Virus record (IMG/VR): IMGVR_UViG_3300009285_000761
Location: 1 to 37,881 of that record
Length of the DNA stretch: 37,881 nucleotides
Source of the DNA: a virus
Strand: one strand, 5' to 3'
Within the stretch, counting starts at the first letter, position 1; every line of letters begins with the position of its first letter. Below, one piece after another: positions 1 to 37,143 of the stretch. Below the pieces are notes generated by a model. The model was not told the DNA's origin, did not search any database, and worked only from the letters and a program-made list of their open reading frames with translations. The translations under genes and the position numbers were made by a program.

Positions 1-111
1 GACATCAACAAGTTTTTCGTAGACAGTTTAGGTGCGTTAGTGTTTGGCACGTTTTTAGTAATCCTCGCAACAATCACTTTATTATTAGTCCCAGTAGTAC
101 CACTTAATTAA
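1..111 (+). CDS. C-terminal end of small membrane protein (partial)
   Basis: The frame opens at the window edge and encodes 36 residues ending in a strongly hydrophobic segment (LVFGTFLVILATITLLLVPV) before the stop. It is almost identical to the last 36 residues of the 124-residue protein at 36755-37129, with one Asp/Asn difference. It is the missing start of this same gene if the contig closes into a circle, or a second variant copy. Function unknown; a single C-terminal transmembrane anchor is the only visible feature. Confidence 0.8.
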   Translation, partial: DINKFFVDSLGALVFGTFLVILATITLLLVPVVPLN

Positions 112-125
112 AATGAACTACAAAA
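1..125. repeat. Left copy of near-identical terminal repeat
   Basis: This stretch matches bases 37020-37143. The first 117 positions differ only at position 22 (G here, A there) and position 51 (G here, A there), then identity fades just after the next start codon. The repeat covers the end of a membrane-protein gene and the first codons of the following gene. Because it is imperfect and the sequence continues past it at the right end, it is not a clean terminal redundancy. Confidence 0.9.
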
Positions 126-1681: not shown

Positions 1682-1897
1682 ATGTACACAAATCAAAATG
1701 GGGAAGCAAATGCAGATAAAATAATCAAGCACATAATAATTGTGATTGTTGGTTTAATAGTTCTCTTTGGTTCATTCGGAACTGTTGGTGCAGGTGAAAG
1801 AGGTGTTAAGACACGTTTTAGTGCTGTTGTAGGAACAGTTGAACAAGGATTATATTTCAAGTTACCTTTAATTGAAAAAGTTAGACATTATCAGTAA
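1682..1897 (+). CDS. Truncated prohibitin/SPFH (Band 7) membrane protein
   Basis: The 71-residue product has an N-terminal transmembrane helix (about residues 15-36, IIIVIVGLIVLFGSF) followed by VGAGERGVKTRFSAVVGTVE and GLYFKLPLIEKV. This is the start of the SPFH/Band 7 domain of prohibitin-type proteins. Cellular relatives run to about 270 residues; this one stops after the first 35 residues of the domain. No continuation of the family is visible downstream in any frame, so it looks like a stable short form rather than a recent frameshift. Prohibitin/HflKC proteins control the FtsH protease and membrane microdomains, so a phage fragment could act as an inhibitory decoy; this is inference. 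Confidence 0.65.
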   Translation: MYTNQNGEANADKIIKHIIIVIVGLIVLFGSFGTVGAGERGVKTRFSAVVGTVEQGLYFKLPLIEKVRHYQ

Positions 1898-1907
1898 GTA
1901 AAAATAT

Positions 1908-2288
1908 ATGATTACATACAGAGATAGAACATTTTGTGCCAGTGAAGTAGAAAAGCATACTTGTGGAAGAGAATTAACCGAAGAAGATAAAAAGAGAGCG
2001 GAAGAAATAGGCTTACCGATAGCTTATGGGAAGTTTTGCGAGATTACCAGTAAAGAGATGAGAGTAACACTAAAGGAAAATATGGGCAACGCAAAAAAAG
2101 GAGAAGTCTTTGTTCAAGGTCTATATGGTGTTCCTGATTACTACAAAGATACTGAAGATACACCCGAAGATTGGTATTGGGCTGAAACTTCAAAAAGAGA
2201 GGATAATAGATTTTTACCTGCGAGTTGTTTTAGGGAACAAAAAATAGACAGCACCTCAGCACCAAGTGCTTTTACAATTGAAAACTAG
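1908..2288 (+). CDS. Hypothetical protein, 126 aa
   Basis: The start lies 10 bp after the truncated SPFH gene, in an AT-rich context without a Shine-Dalgarno site. The product has three cysteines in the first 45 residues (FCASEVEKHTCG, then KFCE), a tryptophan/acid-rich segment (DTPEDWYWAE) and a Ser/Thr-rich tail. No family is recognised. The last bases of the gene carry the -35 element of the next promoter, so it closes the early transcription unit. Confidence 0.65.
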   Translation: MITYRDRTFCASEVEKHTCGRELTEEDKKRAEEIGLPIAYGKFCEITSKEMRVTLKENMGNAKKGEVFVQGLYGVPDYYKDTEDTPEDWYWAETSKREDNRFLPASCFREQKIDSTSAPSAFTIEN

Positions 2289-2311
2289 CTCTTAATTTGG
2301 TATAATACCAA
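2278..2311 (+). promoter_or_regulatory. Promoter with operator palindrome over -10
   Basis: TTGAAA (2278-2283) and TATAAT (2301-2306) are separated by 17 bp, with TGG before the -10. The -10 lies inside a perfect palindrome, TTGGTAT-A-ATACCAA (2297-2311). A dimeric repressor bound there would block RNA polymerase directly. This promoter heads the moron-like cassette. Confidence 0.75.
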
Positions 2312-2776
2312 CAGTCATAGGAATTATCGAAGGGCATTGTTAAAGTAACGACTCACATATTTTTACAGTAAAGTAACCGATACACAAACAATTTCCTTCC
2401 ATGTTTCTTATATTAGTCCTTTGACAATCAGTGGTTGATTCTATGTTGGGGTGGGCGGAAGCCCCGTGGGGATTTTGTTTAAGCTGAACATTCACCCCTT
2501 TCTCGGCAATGTGTACACAAAAGCTGAAAACCCTAACACAGAGTCAATCACAGTGGTTGATTACTTTCTGCGGTAGGCGAAAATAGAGAGACGCTATATC
2601 TTACATAAATTCCGTTGTAGGACGAACATTATACTACTGGTTGATAACCCAATGTGAATGCTTGACGGAGCTATGACTTTAAGTCAAATTGAGACATAAA
2701 AACCTTGCAAGGTGACCATTAAAAAGAAATCCTTGCCCGCAGAACGTAGTCAATCACACGAAAGGAGGACAGAACC
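2312..2776 (+). other. Non-coding structured leader of cassette (candidate ncRNA or origin)
   Basis: This 465-base stretch has no reading frame of 60 codons or more on either strand. It is full of short repeats and dyads: CAGTGGTTGATT at 2429 and 2551, AGTCAATCACA at 2542 and 2748, AAGCTGAA at 2481 and 2521, TAAAGTAAC at 2341 and 2369. It also has the perfect palindromes TGTGTACACA (2510) and CCTTGCAAGG (2703), and a GGGGTG/CACCCC pairing that encloses CCCCGTGGGG. It lies between a strong promoter and a strong ribosome binding site. It could be an RNA that folds, a regulatory leader or a replication element; I cannot match it to a known family. Confidence 0.55.
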
Positions 2777-2980
2777 ATGCACCACATCTCAATCCTCTGT
2801 AATCTGTGTAAAAGACAGATAGGCACAGGGAAGTATCAAAAGTACCACGATGAACAAAACGGCATGACCTATTACTGGCACGCCGACCTCATTAACAACT
2901 GTGCCGAAAAGGTAAAACAAAAAGTGATAGCAGAGTATCTAACTGCAATCACACTCGCCAAGCGTGGGAGAATTAAATGA
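2777..2980 (+). CDS. Small zinc-finger-like protein, 67 aa
   Basis: A strong Shine-Dalgarno site (AAAGGAGG) precedes the ATG, unlike most genes of this window. The product has CNLC near residue 8, then a His and Cys in HADLINNCAEK, which could complete a zinc site (CxxC...H...C). The C-terminal half is helical and basic. It overlaps the next gene by 4 bp (ATGA), so the cassette is translationally coupled. Function unknown; DNA or RNA binding is inferred. Confidence 0.65.
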   Translation: MHHISILCNLCKRQIGTGKYQKYHDEQNGMTYYWHADLINNCAEKVKQKVIAEYLTAITLAKRGRIK

Positions 2981-3198
2981 AGAAGACAAAGAAGCTTCAT
3001 TTTAGTTATCACCACAAAAAATGCAGAAGCAATGGTGGAACAAACGAACCAGAAAACTTGGTTCACGTTCCCGACCACCTTCACCGAGCGTGGCATTGTC
3101 TTTTCAACAATCACACGCCACAGGAGATAGCCGACATCATCAATGCTGTCTGGCTTGACCATGACTTCACCTTCAAAGTAGAAAGGAGGAGGAAATGA
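2977..3198 (+). CDS. HNH-like protein, 73 aa
   Basis: The product reads SYHHKKCRSNGGTNEPENLV then VPDHLHRAWHCLF. This fits the HNH core: paired His, an NGGTNxPENL loop carrying the Asn, and a final His in the DHLHRAWH helix. It lacks the structural CxxC pairs of larger HNH enzymes and is very short. The tail (TPQEIADIINAVWLDHDFTF) follows the core. It may be a mini-nuclease or a catalytically dead DNA-binding relative. I believe similar 'HxAWHxLF' proteins occur in Patescibacteria, but could not check this. Confidence 0.55.
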   Translation: MKKTKKLHFSYHHKKCRSNGGTNEPENLVHVPDHLHRAWHCLFNNHTPQEIADIINAVWLDHDFTFKVERRRK

Positions 3199-3359
3199 TT
3201 GACGATTGCGTAATCTGCGGTAAGGAAACTTCCTCCGAGAGCTTAGGTGTTCCAATCTGCTCAAACAAGGAATGTGTCAAAGAGTGGTTTGCCCTTACTT
3301 ACATAGAACGGGTGAACTTAATCGCACAGTATCAATCCATGAAAGGAGACGGGGAATGA
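3195..3359 (+). CDS. Mini zinc-ribbon protein, 54 aa
   Basis: The ATG overlaps the previous stop (ATGA) and is preceded by AAAGGAGGAGG, an exceptionally strong ribosome binding site. The product has CVIC at residues 5-8 and C...C in ICSNKEC, giving a four-cysteine zinc ribbon, then a helix (EWFALTYIERVNLIAQYQSM). It overlaps the next gene by 4 bp. No function can be named; it may act with the neighbouring zinc-finger and HNH-like proteins. Confidence 0.65.
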   Translation: MIDDCVICGKETSSESLGVPICSNKECVKEWFALTYIERVNLIAQYQSMKGDGE

Positions 3360-3532
3360 AATGTTACTACTGTCGCCACGAGATAACCGAGTTGGAAAGC
3401 TCATCTTGCGTTCCCTCGGAAGTCAAAGACCAGAACTACGTTTTTCATACGCCCTGCTACAAGAAGTGGGAAGAAGAAAAGCGTTGGGAAAAGGAAATGC
3501 AACGCCTTGCGTATCTTGCGAGGCAAACTTAG
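3356..3532 (+). CDS. Mini zinc-finger protein, 58 aa
   Basis: The start overlaps the preceding stop (ATGA) and has AAAGGAGA upstream. The product starts MKCYYCRHEI, with later Cys, His and Cys (SSCVPSE, FHTPCYKKWEE) that could form a treble-clef-like zinc site. A highly charged helix (EEEKRWEKEMQRL) ends the protein. It is the last of four coupled small genes in the cassette. Function unknown. Confidence 0.6.
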   Translation: MKCYYCRHEITELESSSCVPSEVKDQNYVFHTPCYKKWEEEKRWEKEMQRLAYLARQT

Positions 3533-3586
3533 AGAGGGGGTGGCCAAAATCTCCCGTGACTGGCGGGTTATCCAGTCAACCACAAC

Positions 3587-3618
3587 AATTGTGTAGATAG
3601 ACTTTTATCCACACAATT
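3587..3618 (+). promoter_or_regulatory. Long dyad with embedded DnaA box
   Basis: AATTGTGT (3587-3594) and ACACAATT (3611-3618) are perfect inverted repeats, extended inward by GATA/TATC after one mismatch. The right arm contains TTATCCACA (3605-3613), the consensus DnaA box. A T-rich run follows, so it could end transcription of the zinc-finger genes, bind DnaA, or both. GACTGG/CCAGTC just upstream (about 3558-3577) forms another hairpin. Confidence 0.5.
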
Positions 3619-3661
3619 TTGAGTTATTTTTGTGTACATCTCAACTCTCAAGGAGAACGTG

Positions 3662-3925
3662 ATGAAGATTTTACTTGCTTTGCTCGCCCTCGTGTTCACA
3701 CCTGTCTACGCCCAAGAAATGCTCAAGGGCAAGGTGGTAATCGGACAAGGTATCTGCGACCTCAAAGATAAGGAATACAACTGCCTACTCGCCGTAGACC
3801 CCAAGAACCAAGACATCGGCTACCTCGTCCTCATGGCAAGCGACGGCCAACCCCTCGTGGTTATCGAGGCAAACATGAAGACAGGAGAAGCCAAAGAAGT
3901 ATGGAACAGAAAAAGCTACATTTGA
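3662..3925 (+). CDS. Small secreted protein with signal peptide, 87 aa
   Basis: The ATG at 3662 has AAGGAG upstream and was chosen over an in-frame TTG. Residues 1-17 form a classic signal peptide ending VYA, with cleavage before QEM. The mature 70 residues contain two cysteines (GICDLKDKEYNC) that could form a disulphide, and a compact beta-rich sequence. Codons end in C much more often than in the flanking phage genes. It is followed by a strong terminator. As the only exported product of the cassette it may alter the host envelope, for example to exclude other phages; this is inference. Confidence 0.7.
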   Translation: MKILLALLALVFTPVYAQEMLKGKVVIGQGICDLKDKEYNCLLAVDPKNQDIGYLVLMASDGQPLVVIEANMKTGEAKEVWNRKSYI

Positions 3926-3938
3926 CCCTAGTGGTCGC

Positions 3939-3970
3939 CTAGAGCCCTAACACGGCTCTAGTATTTATTT
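3939..3970 (+). terminator. Intrinsic terminator closing the cassette
   Basis: CTAGAGCC and GGCTCTAG form a perfect 8-bp stem with a 7-base loop, followed by TATTTATTT. It lies just after the secreted protein gene and before the terminase promoter. Confidence 0.85.
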
Positions 3971-12303: not shown

Positions 12304-12861
12304 ATGTTTAAGAAAGGATACAAACAAACTCAAGTGCATAAAGATAAAATTGGAAAAGCCAATGCTGTTTCCCTAAAAGGACATAAGGGACATTGGTTAG
12401 GTAAAAAACGTTCACATGAGACTATTGAAAAGGTGAGGATGGGCAATTTAGGCAAAAAGCACTCCGAAGAAACAAAGAGAAAAATGAGCGTTGTTGGGAA
12501 AGGTAGAAAACTTACGGAAGAAGCTAAGCTAAAAATTAGCAAGGCACATAAAGGCAAGCCCAAGCCCAACCAAAGTGGTGAAAAAAGCGGAAAATGGAAG
12601 GGTGGTATAACCCCAATTAACCATAAAATAAGAACCTCACTTGAATATAAACTTTGGCGCACCGCAGTTTTTGAACGGGATAATTATATGTGCATCTGGG
12701 GAGGTAAAGAACATGGAAGCAAACTCAACGCCGACCATATTAAACCCTTTGCTTACTATCCTGAACTTAGATTTGCAATAGATAATGGCAGAACACTTTG
12801 CGTAACATGTCATCGGGCAACTGATACTTTTGGCAATAAGTGTCGTAAAAATTATGAGTAA
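12304..12861 (+). CDS. Free-standing HNH homing endonuclease with NUMOD3 repeats
   Basis: The 185-residue protein has NUMOD3-type DNA-binding repeats over about residues 35-95 (GKKRSHETIEKVRMGNLGKK, HSEETKRKM, LTEEAKLKIS). A C-terminal HNH domain follows (RDNYMCIWGG, LNADHIKPFA, LCVTCHRAT). The first Cys pair is incomplete: CIWGG has only one Cys where CxxC is usual. The gene has no intron around it and overlaps the next virion gene by 8 bp, so it is a free-standing selfish insertion. It would cut related phages lacking it. Confidence 0.85.
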   Translation: MFKKGYKQTQVHKDKIGKANAVSLKGHKGHWLGKKRSHETIEKVRMGNLGKKHSEETKRKMSVVGKGRKLTEEAKLKISKAHKGKPKPNQSGEKSGKWKGGITPINHKIRTSLEYKLWRTAVFERDNYMCIWGGKEHGSKLNADHIKPFAYYPELRFAIDNGRTLCVTCHRATDTFGNKCRKNYE

Positions 12862-31706: not shown

Positions 31707-31718
31707 TTTATTATCAGC

Positions 31719-31772
31719 GTAGGGGAGAGAATATCAACACCTTTTCATAAAGTATATCATCTTCTCCCCTAC
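31719..31772 (+). other. Long-armed hairpin between lysis genes
   Basis: GTAGGGGAGA and TCTCCCCTAC are a perfect 10-bp inverted repeat around a 34-base loop. There is no U-run downstream. The loop is AT-rich and may hold a further weak stem. It may slow or stabilise transcripts between the transglycosylase and the small holin. Confidence 0.6.
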
Positions 31773-31807
31773 AGTGGTCGTAAATTATAAATAATAATAA
31801 AAATAAT

Positions 31808-32002
31808 ATGAATATAAGCTCAACATATTTATCAGTTTTGGTCATGGTGTTAGCACAGGTTTTACCAAAGTTTGGTGTTGTAGTTGGTACAGATGAACTT
31901 ACGACAACAGTCGCAACAATAGTAACAATTTTTGCTGGAATAAAGGTACTTTATGAGCGATACAAGCGTGGCGATGTTTCAATTTTCGGTTCGTATCTTT
32001 AG
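31808..32002 (+). CDS. Holin-like protein with two transmembrane segments, 64 aa
   Basis: The product has one hydrophobic segment at residues 5-27 (STYLSVLVMVLAQVLPKFGV) and another at about 33-48 (TVATIVTIFAGIKVLY), followed by a basic tail (ERYKRGDVSIFG). This layout resembles small two-TM holins common in metagenomic phages. It lies next to the transglycosylase. The function is inferred. Confidence 0.65.
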   Translation: MNISSTYLSVLVMVLAQVLPKFGVVVGTDELTTTVATIVTIFAGIKVLYERYKRGDVSIFGSYL

Positions 32003-32012
32003 ATATCAGAAC

Positions 32013-32038
32013 ACTCCTAACAGTCATTAGTTGGGAGT
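32013..32038 (+). terminator. Hairpin/terminator after holin gene
   Basis: ACTCCTAAC and GTTGGGAGT form a 9-bp stem (one G-U) with an 8-base loop, followed by CTTGTGCTATTT, a weak U-run. It probably ends part of the lysis transcript. Confidence 0.55.
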
Positions 32039-32070
32039 CTTGTGCTATTTAAAAATAAGGTCGAAATAAA

Positions 32071-32268
32071 ATGAAGAATCACACAACAAATAAGAGGAAA
32101 AAGGATATAATTAAATCAATAAGGTTGATAAATGAGTCTTTGGATAGCCACCTTGATTCTACTGGGAATGAAAGATTAAAAGGTGGTATTGTCGGGAATA
32201 GACACTTCCACAAAAAGACAATTAAAGAATATCATTATAAAATAGGTGTCTTAATTGAAATGCTATGA
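32071..32268 (+). CDS. Small basic protein, 65 aa
   Basis: The product is rich in Lys, His and Asn (MKNHTTNKRKKDIIKSIRLI) with one clear helix and a second at the end (IKEYHYKIGVLIEML). It overlaps the next gene by 4 bp (ATGA). It belongs to a chain of four coupled small genes. Function unknown. Confidence 0.6.
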   Translation: MKNHTTNKRKKDIIKSIRLINESLDSHLDSTGNERLKGGIVGNRHFHKKTIKEYHYKIGVLIEML

Positions 32269-32423
32269 CATGTGACGACTGCAAAAAGAAGACGGGCATA
32301 CAGTATAAAACGGAGTTTGGATTCCTTTGTGATAAATGTTGGGATAAGTTAATTAAATATGAGTCAATTTTAAAAAAAGAAACTAACGATAAAAGGAAAA
32401 ATGAAGATACCAAAAAAAATTAA
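32265..32423 (+). CDS. Zinc-ribbon mini-protein, 52 aa
   Basis: The start overlaps the previous stop (ATGA). The product has CDDC at residues 3-6 and CDKC around 22-25 (MTCDDCKKKTGIQYKTEFGF then LCDKCWDKL), a clear four-Cys zinc ribbon, and a basic helical tail. It overlaps the following metallopeptidase start by 23 bp. Function unknown; it may bind DNA or partner proteins. Confidence 0.65.
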   Translation: MTCDDCKKKTGIQYKTEFGFLCDKCWDKLIKYESILKKETNDKRKNEDTKKN

Positions 32424-33670: not shown

Positions 33671-34009
33671 ACCTAGTTGGGGATTACTAGCATAGCCTGT
33701 TGTTGTCCTAATTCTGCATTCTTTTGAGCAATAAGAAGCTCTTCCATAGGGAAATTCTTTTTTACAGCCGACACAACGTTTTTTAGTGGGTTTTAATTTT
33801 GGATTCTTTTTAATTCTGGCCTTTTCTTTTACAACCTTAATTCTTGTTAAAGATAATTGTTTTTTATTGGCTATCCAACAAGTAGGACAACGCAGTCTTT
33901 TTTTAGAAGATGCTTCAAATAACGCTTCGCATACCTTACACTCTAGCCATACTTTTTTTCTTTTATAATTGTAAAGTAAGGATTCTACGTGGATTGAGTT
34001 TTCTTTCAT
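33662..34009 (-). CDS. Double zinc-finger protein, 115 aa
   Basis: The product has one four-Cys site (CKVCEALFEASSKKRLRCPTC) and a second (RCVGCKKEFPYGRASYCSKE), with a basic Lys-rich link (KEKARIKKNPKLKPTKKR). It starts on the overlap ATGA with the HNH gene. Nucleic-acid binding is likely. Zinc-finger proteins next to an HNH nuclease may form a two-part targeting unit; inference. Confidence 0.65.
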   Translation of the reverse strand: MKENSIHVESLLYNYKRKKVWLECKVCEALFEASSKKRLRCPTCWIANKKQLSLTRIKVVKEKARIKKNPKLKPTKKRCVGCKKEFPYGRASYCSKECRIRTTTGYASNPQLGID

Positions 34010-34335
34010 GGTCTTGATTTTATTTCCCTATTCCAGTAATCAGCGTCAGCCTTTACGTTCTCGTTCCACGATTTAAAAGACATTAAGTGTCCTATAAATA
34101 AATGGTGGTCAGGGCAAAGTGTAATAAGGTTGCTCGATTCCAACTCTAATTCAGGAAATTTATGGAAAGGCTGGCAATGATGGACTTGGAGAGGATTAAG
34201 TAGGCTAGATTTTTTATCACACACAGCACAGGTGGGATGTTTTTCTAAATGTGCTTTGCGGACAGTAGACCATTTACTTGAGCGTGTTGCTCCAAAAGTA
34301 CGACTACTAAAAATAGAAATCAACCAGTTAATCAT
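34006..34335 (-). CDS. HNH endonuclease, 109 aa
   Basis: The product carries the standard HNH layout: CAVC, then LQVHHCQPF with paired His, ESSNLITLC and PDHHLFIGH. The N-terminal part is basic (RTFGATRSSKWSTVRKAH), typical of phage HNH enzymes. Such enzymes often aid packaging near terminase, but this one is far from it and on the other strand. It overlaps the preceding membrane peptide gene by 8 bp (ATGATTAA). Confidence 0.75.
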   Translation of the reverse strand: MINWLISIFSSRTFGATRSSKWSTVRKAHLEKHPTCAVCDKKSSLLNPLQVHHCQPFHKFPELELESSNLITLCPDHHLFIGHLMSFKSWNENVKADADYWNREIKSRP

Positions 34336-34496: not shown

Positions 34497-34514
34497 CCTC
34501 TATAAATAAACACC

Positions 34515-34533
34515 TGTGGAAAACTTATCCACA
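34515..34533. promoter_or_regulatory. Two facing DnaA boxes
   Basis: TGTGGAAAA (34515-34523; TTTTCCACA on the minus strand) and TTATCCACA (34525-34533) both fit TTWTNCACA and face each other, one base apart. They lie between divergent promoters. This may be a DnaA-controlled switch or part of a replication origin. Confidence 0.65.
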
Positions 34534-34539
34534 AATCGC

Positions 34540-34568
34540 TTGACTTGTTTTTTAAATGGGTATATACT
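34540..34568 (+). promoter_or_regulatory. Strong promoter for short RNA
   Basis: TTGACT, 17 bp, TATACT: the best -35/-10 pair in the window. Transcription would start at about 34575, next to an ATG at 34576. Confidence 0.75.
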
Positions 34569-34574
34569 TTCAAA

Positions 34575-34682
34575 TATGAAAGGTAAAGCACAAAGCGAAA
34601 AGTTTATTTCTACACAGAAGTTGATTTCTCGCTTTGCCTTTCAACAAGCTAGGAAGACCGTCTCTTAATTGGGGCGGTTTTT
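34575..34682 (+). ncRNA. Short promoter-terminator RNA with possible 30-aa leaderless peptide
   Basis: This stretch of about 108 bases lies between the strong promoter and a terminator. GAAAGGTAAAGC (34578-34589) pairs over 12 bp with GCTTTGCCTTTC (34631-34642), with one G-U. A competing helix is CAAAGCGA/TCGCTTTG (34591/34629), so two folds exclude each other. The same stretch can be read from the ATG at 34576 as a 30-residue basic peptide (MKGKAQSEKFISTQKLISRF, then a basic tail), stopping inside the terminator stem. RNA regulator and leaderless peptide are both possible. Confidence 0.6.
34657..34682 (+). terminator. Intrinsic terminator of the short RNA
   Basis: ACCGTCTC and GGGGCGGT (two G-U pairs) form an 8-bp stem with loop TTAATT, followed by TTTTT. 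Confidence 0.8.
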
Positions 34683-34694
34683 CTATGTGCTGTT

Positions 34695-34722
34695 TTTACA
34701 AAGTTTCTTGAGGTGCTATAAG
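34695..34722 (+). promoter_or_regulatory. Promoter for early operon
   Basis: TTTACA, 16 bp, TATAAG with TGC before it. The leader of about 110 bases includes AAGTC/GACTT and GTCCG/CGGAC hairpins before the first ATG at 34841. Confidence 0.5.
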
Positions 34723-34840
34723 TACATTCACCTTAAAATAAACAATGACTTAGTGTTCGTAATTTGATGCAAGTCGCCTGACTTTAAGCTAAAAGTGTCC
34801 GCTCTGTTCACCCCCTAACAACGGACGACCCCATCAGATT

Positions 34841-35146
34841 ATGAATAATTACAACGAAGAAACCACATATACTGAACCTAAACGTATTTCCTTGATATTG
34901 GGGGATACAAAGGGGGTAGTATTACCTGAAAACAAAATCAACTCAGAGCGAGCAATGCTTATAAATGATTTCTTGGTAGAAATAAACAAAGAAAGGGAGG
35001 GAACTACTTATAAACCAATGACAGCGAGAGGCGTTGCAATTAAACTAGGGCATATTCCAACAAACGAACTTTATTATTTTTACAAGGTGTGCTTTAAAAG
35101 CAAAAGTTTTGGAAGAACATTTTTCGGAGCTTTGAAGATAAAATAG
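34841..35146 (+). CDS. Hypothetical early protein, 101 aa
   Basis: The product has an acidic N terminus and strand region (KRISLILGDTKGVVLPENKI), then helices (MLINDFLVEINKEREGTTYK) and a conserved-looking end (LYYFYKVCFKSKSFGRTFFG). Proteins with this 'LYYFYxxC...FGxTFFGALK' end accompany recombination and replication genes in other phages, to my knowledge, but I cannot name a function. It is the first gene of the early operon. Confidence 0.6.
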   Translation: MNNYNEETTYTEPKRISLILGDTKGVVLPENKINSERAMLINDFLVEINKEREGTTYKPMTARGVAIKLGHIPTNELYYFYKVCFKSKSFGRTFFGALKIK

Positions 35147-35197: not shown

Positions 35198-35569
35198 ATG
35201 AACGAAATAAATTCTTACATTTTAAAACTTCAAGGAAAGGCAGAACTTCCCGAAGAAATAGAGATAAGTGAGAACTACCACGTTTCCCTAGAGGGTAGTA
35301 TCACTTCCTATAGCCTCCACGACAACCAAAATGGCACCTACGACAAGATTTTTACCTTTAAACCTATCAAGGTAGATTTGCTAACAAATAAGGGTAAATC
35401 TCTTCATTTGAAGGACACACGCTCATCTTCTCAACTGTTCCGTGGAAGTTTATATAAGAATTGGCTCAACTCACAAGCAGGATTAGATTTTGACACTTGG
35501 TATGTTAATGGAATGTTAGAACTTATTAAAGATAAAGATACTGTGGCGGGTATGTATTTTCCTAAATGA
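35198..35569 (+). CDS. Hypothetical early protein, 123 aa
   Basis: The first half is beta-rich (GKAELPEEIEISENYHVSLE, NGTYDKIFTFKPIKVDLL) and the second is helical (SSSQLFRGSLYKNWLNSQAG). The stop overlaps the methyltransferase start by 4 bp (ATGA). The N-terminal layout could be a small barrel. It is coupled to the methyltransferase and may bind or protect DNA with it; inference. Confidence 0.6.
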   Translation: MNEINSYILKLQGKAELPEEIEISENYHVSLEGSITSYSLHDNQNGTYDKIFTFKPIKVDLLTNKGKSLHLKDTRSSSQLFRGSLYKNWLNSQAGLDFDTWYVNGMLELIKDKDTVAGMYFPK

Positions 35570-36222
35570 AAATCTTAAATCTATATGCTGGAATAGGTGG
35601 AAACCGAAAACTTTGGGGTGATGAACACGAAATTACAGCTGTGGAGTGGAAGCCAGAAATAGCAAAGAAATATCAAGAGTTTTTTTCTAACGACAAAGTG
35701 ATAGTTGGAGATGCCCACCAATATCTTTTAGAACATTATTACGAGTTTGACTTTATTTGGAGTTCACCACCTTGCCCAACTCACACAAGAATGAATATAG
35801 CTAACCAGATTTCTCCATATAAGGATAACGCTAAACAGATACAGCAAGGGGGGGGTATAAAACCCCGTTATCCTGATATGAATTTATATCAAGAAATTAT
35901 TTTTTTGAAGCATTTCTTTAAAGGAAAATGGTGTGTTGAAAATGTGGTAAGTTATTATGAACCCCTAATACCTCCTAACGATTTCGGTGGACATTATTTT
36001 TGGACTAACTTTATTTTAAGAGATTTTGCTGTTGGTGGCCGTGGAATGGGTAGAAATGATACAACAAGAGAGACTTTAACCAAAAGAAAGGGTTACAAAT
36101 GGGAGGACTTAGTGGGGTTAGATAGAGAATTAGTTTTAAGAAATTGTGTAGAGCCTGAATTAGGCAAACATATATTAGACCTTGCGATTAACCCAATAGA
36201 GATACAAACAAGCATATTTTAA
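35566..36222 (+). CDS. Small C5-cytosine DNA methyltransferase
   Basis: The 218-residue enzyme carries motif I (NLYAGIGGNRKLW, residues 5-17), motif IV SPPCPT with catalytic Cys70, and motif VI ENV (125-127). It would transfer methyl from S-adenosylmethionine to cytosine C5. It is clearly shorter than full C5 methyltransferases, with little room for a target-recognition domain. A run of eight G at 35848-35855 codes GGG (QQGGGIKP). Slippage there would break the frame, so phase variation is possible. It could protect phage DNA from host restriction. Confidence 0.8.
   Translation: MKILNLYAGIGGNRKLWGDEHEITAVEWKPEIAKKYQEFFSNDKVIVGDAHQYLLEHYYEFDFIWSSPPCPTHTRMNIANQISPYKDNAKQIQQGGGIKPRYPDMNLYQEIIFLKHFFKGKWCVENVVSYYEPLIPPNDFGGHYFWTNFILRDFAVGGRGMGRNDTTRETLTKRKGYKWEDLVGLDRELVLRNCVEPELGKHILDLAINPIEIQTSIF
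35848..35855 (+). repeat. Poly-G(8) tract in methyltransferase gene
   Basis: Eight G in a row, followed shortly by CCCC, inside the methyltransferase frame. Length change by one base would truncate the protein after about 100 residues. Confidence 0.9.
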
Positions 36223-36270: not shown

Positions 36271-36672
36271 ATGAAGAAAAAAACAGACGCACAGCTTAAG
36301 AAGATACTTTGGAAAATAGTATCTAAAAGGGTAAGGGAAAGAGATAACTACATCTGCTTTACTTCAAAGAAAAAAGTAGAGGGGGCGAACGCTCATTGTG
36401 GACACGGATTACCCAGCTCAATTTGTGGCGGTCGTTTAAGGTATCACCCCAAAAATCTCCATTGCCAGTCGTATCACGAAAATATAAATCTTGGTGGAAA
36501 TGGAACAATCTATTATCAAGAACAAGTGAAGCGATATGGCAAAAAAACAGTAGATAAATTATATAAACTTAAAGATAAATATATTAAGGTAGATAGTATT
36601 TTTTACAATAAACTTATTGACTTATACACTAGTGGAACTTGGGAAGATATAGAAAATTACCTTGCAAAATAA
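36271..36672 (+). CDS. ninG: NinG/Rap-like recombination protein
   Basis: The 133-residue product has RERDNYICFTS, then AHCGHGLPSSICGGRLRYHP and NLHCQSYHENINLGGNGT, followed by YYQEQVKRYGKKTVDKLY. This is the conserved layout of lambda NinG (Rap), an HNH-related nuclease that resolves branched recombination structures. The lambda zinc residues are only partly kept. With the ERF-like annealing gene it implies a lambda-like single-strand annealing route, if the genome is circular. No Shine-Dalgarno site before the ATG. Confidence 0.75.
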   Translation: MKKKTDAQLKKILWKIVSKRVRERDNYICFTSKKKVEGANAHCGHGLPSSICGGRLRYHPKNLHCQSYHENINLGGNGTIYYQEQVKRYGKKTVDKLYKLKDKYIKVDSIFYNKLIDLYTSGTWEDIENYLAK

Positions 36673-36754: not shown

Positions 36755-37129
36755 ATGAGAGTAGTAAATTATCAGTACATAAGTCTTTATGGCAACAAGG
36801 CAGAACGCCAACTAGCCAATAAGATTTTAAACTTTCATTTTAAAAGGTTGATACTTAGTCGAAAAGTAGACAACGAAGCATTATCAGATTATATGAAACA
36901 AGGATTACCAATGAGCTACATACACAACCACGCAGAAGCAAGGCAGTTAGTGAGAGATATTAGAAAGAAAAGAAGTCCAATAGTGCATTTCTTTAAAGGT
37001 CTAAATATCGCTCAAAAAGACATCAACAAGTTTTTCGTAAACAGTTTAGGTGCGTTAGTGTTTGGCACATTTTTAGTAATCCTCGCAACAATCACTTTAT
37101 TATTAGTCCCAGTAGTACCACTTAATTAA
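36755..37129 (+). CDS. Early membrane-anchored protein, 124 aa
   Basis: The N-terminal 90 residues are basic and helical (QYISLYGNKAERQLANKILN, LPMSYIHNHAEARQLVRDIR). The end is a transmembrane segment (LVFGTFLVILATITLLLVPV). The last 36 residues are repeated with one change at the left window end, so this gene links both ends of the contig. The function is unknown; a membrane-tethered DNA or host-factor binder is one guess. Confidence 0.7.
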   Translation: MRVVNYQYISLYGNKAERQLANKILNFHFKRLILSRKVDNEALSDYMKQGLPMSYIHNHAEARQLVRDIRKKRSPIVHFFKGLNIAQKDINKFFVNSLGALVFGTFLVILATITLLLVPVVPLN

Positions 37130-37143
37130 AATGAACGACAAAA
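37020..37143. repeat. Right copy of near-identical terminal repeat
   Basis: Matches bases 1-125 (two mismatches in the first 117). Beyond it the right end continues with different small genes for another 740 bases, whereas the left end continues with a different gene at the same place. Confidence 0.9.

What the first reader, a model, noticed from the sequence alone, without database searches (positions are those of the whole stretch)
2278..3970. Self-contained moron-like cassette of foreign style
A strong promoter with operator palindrome (2278-2311), about 465 nt of non-coding leader, four coupled mini zinc-finger/HNH-like genes, one secreted protein and a perfect terminator (3939-3970) sit between early genes and terminase. 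Unlike the rest of the window, four of its five genes have strong AAAGGAG-type Shine-Dalgarno sites, and codons end in C far more often. That suggests recent transfer. The mix of nucleic-acid binding mini-proteins plus one exported protein is a candidate new exclusion or host-modifying system.
Basis: partly seen in the sequence, partly recalled or inferred. Interest (0 to 1): 0.85.

Follow-up and report, generated by a model that had tools for sequence, protein, structure and literature searches.

The report
Phage operon with conserved RNA leader
A phage that otherwise almost never uses the standard ribosome-binding signal carries one small operon that uses it strongly; behind a folded RNA leader it encodes a tiny predicted nuclease, zinc-type mini-proteins and an exported protein, and a distantly related phage carries the same kind of unit at a different place.

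Summary
2278-3970 is a separate transcription unit: promoter TTGAAA-17-TATAAT, a 465-nt non-coding leader (fold z=-5.3; it contains the most significant fold of 251 windows), four ATGA-coupled mini-genes, a signal-peptide gene and a terminator-like hairpin. Four of five genes have strong SD sites; 1 of 47 other genes has one as long (p=9e-5). Third-position C is 35% against 16.5%.

It recurs. A virus record with a 70%-identical terminase (G008) has the same kind of unit, on the other strand and about 15 kb from terminase: promoter, folded leader, mini-HNH (43% identical), a C4-like zinc mini-protein, strong SDs and a truncated secreted protein. The leader arm is homologous (a model from the window arm alone finds it, E=4e-7). 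No other related record examined has a strong-SD cluster.

'Recent transfer' is not supported. The dinucleotide signature is ordinary, and the style persists although the proteins have diverged, so selection on expression is likelier. SD masking by the leader is no better than in shuffles. C2 has complete His-Me-finger active-site spacing (H12 H13 N27 H36 H40). Cellular relatives lie mostly in Patescibacteria.

Best reading: an accessory operon for host takeover or exclusion, with a new RNA leader family and SD-dependent translation in an SD-poor phage. The target is unproven.

The parts
2278..2306 (+). Promoter TTGAAA-17-TATAAT with TG extension; its extended -10 (TGGTATAAT) is the phage's recurring promoter box; 15-nt palindrome TTGGTATAATACCAA over the -10
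2314..2412 (+). 5' hairpin domain of the leader RNA
   Evidence: fold z=-3.5
2416..2422 (+). GUCCUUU, predicted to close the two arms by pairing with GGAGGAC at the SD of c1; competes with pairing of the SD to the start of c1, so masking is not established
2430..2552 (+). Leader arm 1: long basal stem, GGAA (GNRA-type) hairpin and two further hairpins; homologous to the leader of virus record G008
   Evidence: z=-6.2; single-sequence CM finds the G008 leader at E=3.9e-7; alignment
2553..2757 (+). Leader arm 2: repeats the basal stem GTGGTTGATT...AATCAC of arm 1 with two compensated pair changes
2777..2980 (+). c1, 67 aa CxxC/HxxD...C mini-protein, SD AAAGGAGG
   Evidence: no family
2977..3198 (+). 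c2, 73 aa mini-HNH (His-Me finger) predicted nuclease core, H12 H13 N27 H36 H40; overlaps c1 by ATGA
3195..3359 (+). c3, 54 aa CxxC/CxxxxC zinc-ribbon-like mini-protein, SD AAAGGAGG, overlaps c2 by ATGA
3356..3532 (+). c4, 58 aa CxxC...HxxC mini-protein, SD AAAGGAG, overlaps c3 by ATGA; similar to a 61-aa protein of the G008 unit
3587..3618 (+). 13-bp inverted repeat in the c4-c5 gap; possible attenuator or processing hairpin
3662..3925 (+). c5, 87 aa predicted secreted protein (signal peptide ending VYA|Q by eye) with an all-beta mature domain, SD AAGGAG
3939..3970 (+). Terminator-like hairpin, 8-bp stem and weak T tract

Best explanation
An accessory phage operon that recurs, on this evidence, in two related phages of a group that probably infects Patescibacteria. 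Shown by sequence: its own promoter; a conserved, strongly folded 5' leader RNA built on a recurring arm; a chain of overlapping mini-genes with strong SD sites in phages that otherwise almost lack them; a mini-HNH protein with a complete His-Me-finger site; C4-type mini-proteins; and a signal-peptide protein. Inferred: the unit is made for strong or separately controlled SD-dependent translation, and the leader arm stabilises the mRNA or is the site where a protein, possibly one of the operon's own products, regulates it. Also inferred: the products act in host takeover or exclusion, c2 as a metal-dependent DNA nuclease or nickase helped by the zinc mini-proteins, and c5 at the envelope. The style is kept by selection rather than being a trace of recent import.
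For: Anatomy. Second copy of the unit in G008 (IMGVR_UViG_3300002460_000129): c2 homolog E=9e-19; leader directly upstream, z=-4.5; strong SDs on the mini-genes and on a truncated secreted protein. Leader homology: a CM from the window arm alone finds it at 33 bits, E=3.9e-7, next hit at another place 10 bits; paired 5-nt indels on both sides of the stem; three basal-stem pairs change on both sides and none on one side only, with slid controls losing the pairing. c4 resembles a G008 mini-protein (E=0.003). The strong-SD clusters are unique to these two among 31 whole records and about 110 loci. c2 as HNH: 12-member alignment, profile hits to EcoKMcrA, IscB HNH and Cas8f-HNH, and Foldseek hits that are almost all HNH-type nucleases. 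Ordinary dinucleotide signature.
Against: Only two copies were found, and one is cut by its contig end. c5 and the G008 secreted protein do not align. Best database E-values for c2 are weak (PDB 0.013, PHROG 0.0016; Foldseek E>1). c2 is smaller than most HNH enzymes and has no obvious DNA-binding domain. SD masking by the leader is no better than in shuffled leaders (14/100 and 70/100). No expression data. The host assignment rests on relatives of c2 and TerL.
Confidence: 0.45

Rival explanations
1. Recently acquired foreign moron: genes from a Patescibacteria chromosome or plasmid with strong SDs and C-ending codons, not yet ameliorated.
For: C3 and SD contrast; some Patescibacteria loci carrying c2 relatives have 57-75% SD genes and C/(C+T) 0.43-0.67; cellular c2 relatives exist.
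Against: Dinucleotide signature not atypical; same style in a second phage at 42-43% protein identity; leader not found in 380 Patescibacteria genomes; the promoter uses the phage's own TGGTATAAT box.
Confidence: 0.2
2. The leader is a translational switch: the helix GUCCUUU/GGAGGAC buries the first SD, and because c2-c4 are ATGA-coupled, opening it turns on the whole chain.
For: Predicted in the window leader and possible in G008, where UCUUU can face AAAGGA; overlapping starts.
Against: With the coding start included, the SD prefers pairing inside c1; mean unpaired probability is 0.033 in the window (14/100 shuffles as low) and 0.416 in G008 (70/100).
Confidence: 0.12
3. The leader is a free-standing structured non-coding RNA (GOLLD/ROOL-like or another ornate phage RNA) and the mini-genes merely lie downstream.
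For: Size and multi-branched fold.
Against: No Rfam match at gathering score and none meaningful at E<=5; the G008 version is only about 127 nt and ends at the SD of the mini-HNH; no terminator was found between leader and genes.
Confidence: 0.1
4. A homing-type mobile cassette spread by the mini-HNH c2.
For: HNH type; different genomic position and strand in the two phages; weak similarity to phage homing HNH proteins (E 0.1-0.6).
Against: c2 has no NUMOD or other recognition domain; no intron or conserved target gene; a NUMOD3-HNH homing-type gene elsewhere in the window (12304-12858) looks different; no empty site available.
Confidence: 0.1
5. Reduced RNA-guided nuclease: structured RNA plus an IscB-like HNH.
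For: Best NCBIfam model for c2 is guided_IscB (E=0.0018, 17 bits, cut-off 175); structured RNA adjacent.
Against: No RuvC or other IscB domains; no HEARO/omega-RNA Rfam match; the match covers only the shared HNH motif.
Confidence: 0.03

Closest known systems
Phage morons (accessory operons with own promoter and terminator)
   Same: Promoter, terminator-like hairpin, position between unrelated phage gene blocks, different style from neighbours, patchy distribution
   Different: Long conserved structured leader; multi-gene chain; SD-rich in an otherwise SD-poor phage; genome signature not foreign
HNH / His-Me finger nucleases (EcoKMcrA, IscB HNH, colicin/pyocin DNase, Gme HNH nickase)
   Same: HH...N...H...H active-site pattern; EcoKMcrA is the top hit by profile and by fold comparison
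   Different: 73 aa with no zinc ribbon or recognition domain; its own C-terminal motif WHxLFxNxTPxEI shared with Patescibacteria proteins
GOLLD / ROOL / OLE ornate RNAs (PMC12286853, found by search, abstract only)
   Same: Large structured RNA in a phage or bacterial genome
   Different: No Rfam match; forms the 5' leader of a protein operon; short in the second phage
Phage manipulation of SD-dependent initiation, such as phage-encoded bS21 (PMC9723584)
   Same: Concerns phage use of the SD/anti-SD interaction
   Different: Here the signal is in the mRNA of one operon; no ribosomal protein gene in the unit

Membership tests
HNH / His-Me finger nuclease (c2) | Metal-ligand and general-base histidines, Asn, and two downstream histidines with canonical spacing | tested here: met
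   H12 H13, N27, H36, H40 in c2; H12, H13, H36 and H40 invariant in 12 relatives; comparison with colicin E7 spacing is from memory, fold hits agree
HNH / His-Me finger nuclease (c2) | Curated family model above cut-off | tested here: not met
   No Pfam or NCBIfam model reaches its cut-off; PHROG HNH E=0.0016
HNH / His-Me finger nuclease (c2) | Beta-beta-alpha fold | tested here: inconclusive
   Model pLDDT 81; strands 9-13 and 28-32, helix 33-42; hits labelled HNH-type but E>1
Phage moron | Own promoter and terminator | tested here: met
   Consensus sites only; no transcript data
Phage moron | Foreign composition | tested here: inconclusive
   Third-position codon usage differs; dinucleotide signature does not
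Phage moron | Absent as an exact insertion from close relatives | tested here: inconclusive
   c2 absent from 40 of 41 related records, many of them fragments; no relative spans the same junction
IscB / HEARO (OMEGA) systems | RuvC domain with HNH plus omega-RNA of the HEARO family | tested here: not met
   c2 is an HNH core only; no HEARO match
GOLLD / ROOL and other catalogued phage RNAs | Match to the Rfam covariance model | tested here: not met
Free-standing homing endonuclease | Recognition domain (NUMOD, AP2 or similar) and site-specific cleavage of cassette-free alleles | tested here: not met
   No such domain in c2; cleavage not testable
Known anti-phage defence or exclusion systems | Match to PADLOC models | tested here: not met
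   Only weak partial hits: c2 to DpdF (E=0.025) and c3 to PDC-S02 (E=0.0044), nothing for the other three
Sec-exported protein (c5) | N-terminal signal peptide with cleavage site | not testable with these tools
   Read by eye: hydrophobic stretch and VYA|Q; residues 1-7 low-confidence, 15-20 helical in the model

The most novel reading that the evidence does not exclude
Probability: 0.12. Interest if true: 0.8.

Novelty: new variant of a known kind. Interest (0 to 1): 0.5.

Why it matters
It gives a conserved leader RNA absent from Rfam and a very small predicted HNH nuclease family whose cellular relatives lie mostly in Patescibacteria. It is also a clean natural case in which one operon departs from the translation-initiation style of its own phage. 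If the style proves functional, it is a handle on how phages of SD-poor bacteria separate gene classes by translation mode, and a source of compact nucleases and of tools for largely uncultured hosts.

Tried and rejected
Rfam at gathering score and at E<=5: nothing meaningful. Direct protein scans of viral contigs for c2 and c5: nothing; the c2 homolog came only from a whole-record search of TerL and capsid relatives. Leader motif pattern scans of viral contigs: the only true hit was G008; the rest were judged chance or coding sequence by reading their contexts. Strict HNH motif in genome contigs: nothing; looser C-terminal motif: 10 hits, mostly Patescibacteria MAGs. Leader model in 380 Patescibacteria genomes and in other loci: nothing new. 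The SD-masking switch failed a shuffle test. Recent transfer by dinucleotide signature failed. c5 against the G008 secreted protein: no BLAST alignment; a short similarity seen by eye was not pursued. c5 Foldseek: only weak Ivy, RseB and LolA resemblance, no E<=0.001. IscB kinship and homing rejected as memberships. L114 and L118 looked like possible members and were rejected as chance. MAFFT misaligned the full leaders; trimmed arms were used.

Full report
What the window is. The window is one complete IMG/VR record of 37,881 bp, with no tRNA and no Rfam match. Its terminase large subunit belongs to a group found in many metagenomic virus records; relatives in a sample of Patescibacteria genome bins reach 41% identity, while the best cultured-phage matches are about 34%.

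The observation. The features read by eye are there. The promoter at 2278-2306 is the best sigma-70-type site in the first 7 kb, and its extended -10, TGGTATAAT, occurs seven times in the window against 0.7 expected, so it is the phage's own promoter style. The next 465 nt carry only chance-sized ORFs and fold with z=-5.3; the 300-nt window that covers most of arm 1 is the most significant of 251. Four mini-genes follow, each start overlapping the previous stop by 4 nt, then after 129 nt a gene for a predicted secreted protein and a terminator-like hairpin.

The style. Four of the five genes have SD matches of six or more bases, against 1 of 47 other genes, and third-position C is 0.351 against 0.165, higher than in any other 339-codon stretch. 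The same SD poverty is seen across the related records (0-10% of ORFs).

The second copy. A search of 41 related records with c2 found one match, in G008 (IMGVR_UViG_3300002460_000129, 29,432 bp; TerL 70% identical), E=9e-19. It sits in a unit of the same build, on the opposite strand and about 15 kb from terminase: a promoter-like TTGATA...TGCTATAAT, a 127-nt leader (z=-4.5), the mini-HNH, a 61-aa CxxC...HxxC protein resembling c4 (E=0.003), a 70-aa CxxC protein and a signal-peptide protein cut by the contig end, with AAAGGAGG-type SDs. Clusters of strong SD sites occur only in these two among about 110 loci and 31 whole records.

The leader RNA. The window leader has two arms that begin and end with the same stem (GTGGTTGATT...AATCAC). 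Arm 1 (2430-2552) is homologous to the G008 leader: AGTGnTTGATTC at the 5' side and CACAGAGnCAAnCAC at the 3' side, with a 5-nt indel on both sides of the stem. On its own the 5' block scores better than all but 0.05% of shuffles and the 3' block better than 94%. A covariance model built from the window arm alone, run without filters, finds the G008 leader at 33 bits (E=3.9e-7), immediately upstream of the c2 homolog, although it aligns it a few bases out of register; with default filters it missed it. Over the three basal stems, three pairs change on both sides and none on one side only, while slid controls lose the pairing. With three sequences, two of them within one leader, this is supportive rather than conclusive.

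What the leader does not do, as far as can be computed. The MFE of the leader alone pairs GUCCUUU with the SD, which suggested a translational switch. With the start of c1 included, the SD prefers a partner inside c1, and its accessibility is no lower than in shuffled leaders (14/100 in the window, 70/100 in G008). I therefore rank mRNA stabilisation or a protein-binding regulatory site above SD masking.

c2. Twelve relatives share H12 H13, H36, W39 H40, F43, T47 P48, E50 I51. The profile finds EcoKMcrA, IscB HNH and Cas8f-HNH in the PDB at weak E-values, and a Foldseek search of the model returns almost only HNH-type nucleases, with E above 1. Cellular relatives found by motif are mostly in Falkowbacteria, Magasanikbacteria, WWE3 and other Patescibacteria MAGs, but rare there (4 of 380 genomes). 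One other virus record has a relative in an ordinary gene run without the leader arm (L143).

c5. A single-sequence model (pLDDT 81) is a five-stranded beta domain after a signal peptide. The best structural neighbours (Ivy, RseB, LolA-type) are not significant.

Recent transfer? Codon style alone suggested it, but the dinucleotide signature of the unit is ordinary for the window (delta* 0.067; 173 of 330 other windows as high), and the same style is present in G008 with proteins diverged to 42-43% identity. Selection on expression explains both better than recent import. I could not find a relative spanning the same junction without the unit, so the insertion itself is not demonstrated.

Function. 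The commitment is to an accessory host-takeover or exclusion operon made for strong or separately controlled SD-dependent translation, with c2 as a small metal-dependent nuclease and c5 acting at the envelope. The anatomy, homology and style are shown; the roles of leader, c2 and c5 are inferred; the target is unknown.

Noticed in passing
window 1-125 and 37019-37143: The first 125 bases repeat the region around the end of gene 36755-37129 almost exactly, then the two copies run into different genes; this suggests a circular map with a variable module or population variants at the contig ends.
   Followed up: partly
window 12304-12858: Free-standing NUMOD3 + HNH homing-type gene inside the structural gene block.
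   Followed up: partly
window 34009-34335 (-), 36271-36669, 35566-36219: Further HNH gene, a NinG-like gene and a C5-methylase-like gene.
   Followed up: no
window 34501-34950: Strongly folded region around the 249-nt non-coding stretch 34592-34840 (z about -3.9 and -3.7), with a GACCGTC/GGCGGTT hairpin and T-run.
   Followed up: no
window 31707-32400: 694-nt stretch with no listed ORF of 70 aa or more but several short ATG frames.
   Followed up: no
window 1682-1897: 71-aa gene matching the start of the SPFH/Band_7 domain (Pfam E=5e-6), apparently a truncated stomatin-like protein.
   Followed up: no
L004, L006, L007, L010 upstream of TerL: About 500-577-aa proteins resembling GroEL lie upstream of the terminase in several related phages; identification by eye.
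   Followed up: no
L007, L013, L021, L026: Terminase ORFs of about 670-760 aa; in L021 an intein-like insert interrupts the Walker region.
   Followed up: no
L090, L092: Close capsid and portal relatives (77% and 64%) whose terminase is not detectably related to the window's, so the terminase module has been exchanged.
   Followed up: partly
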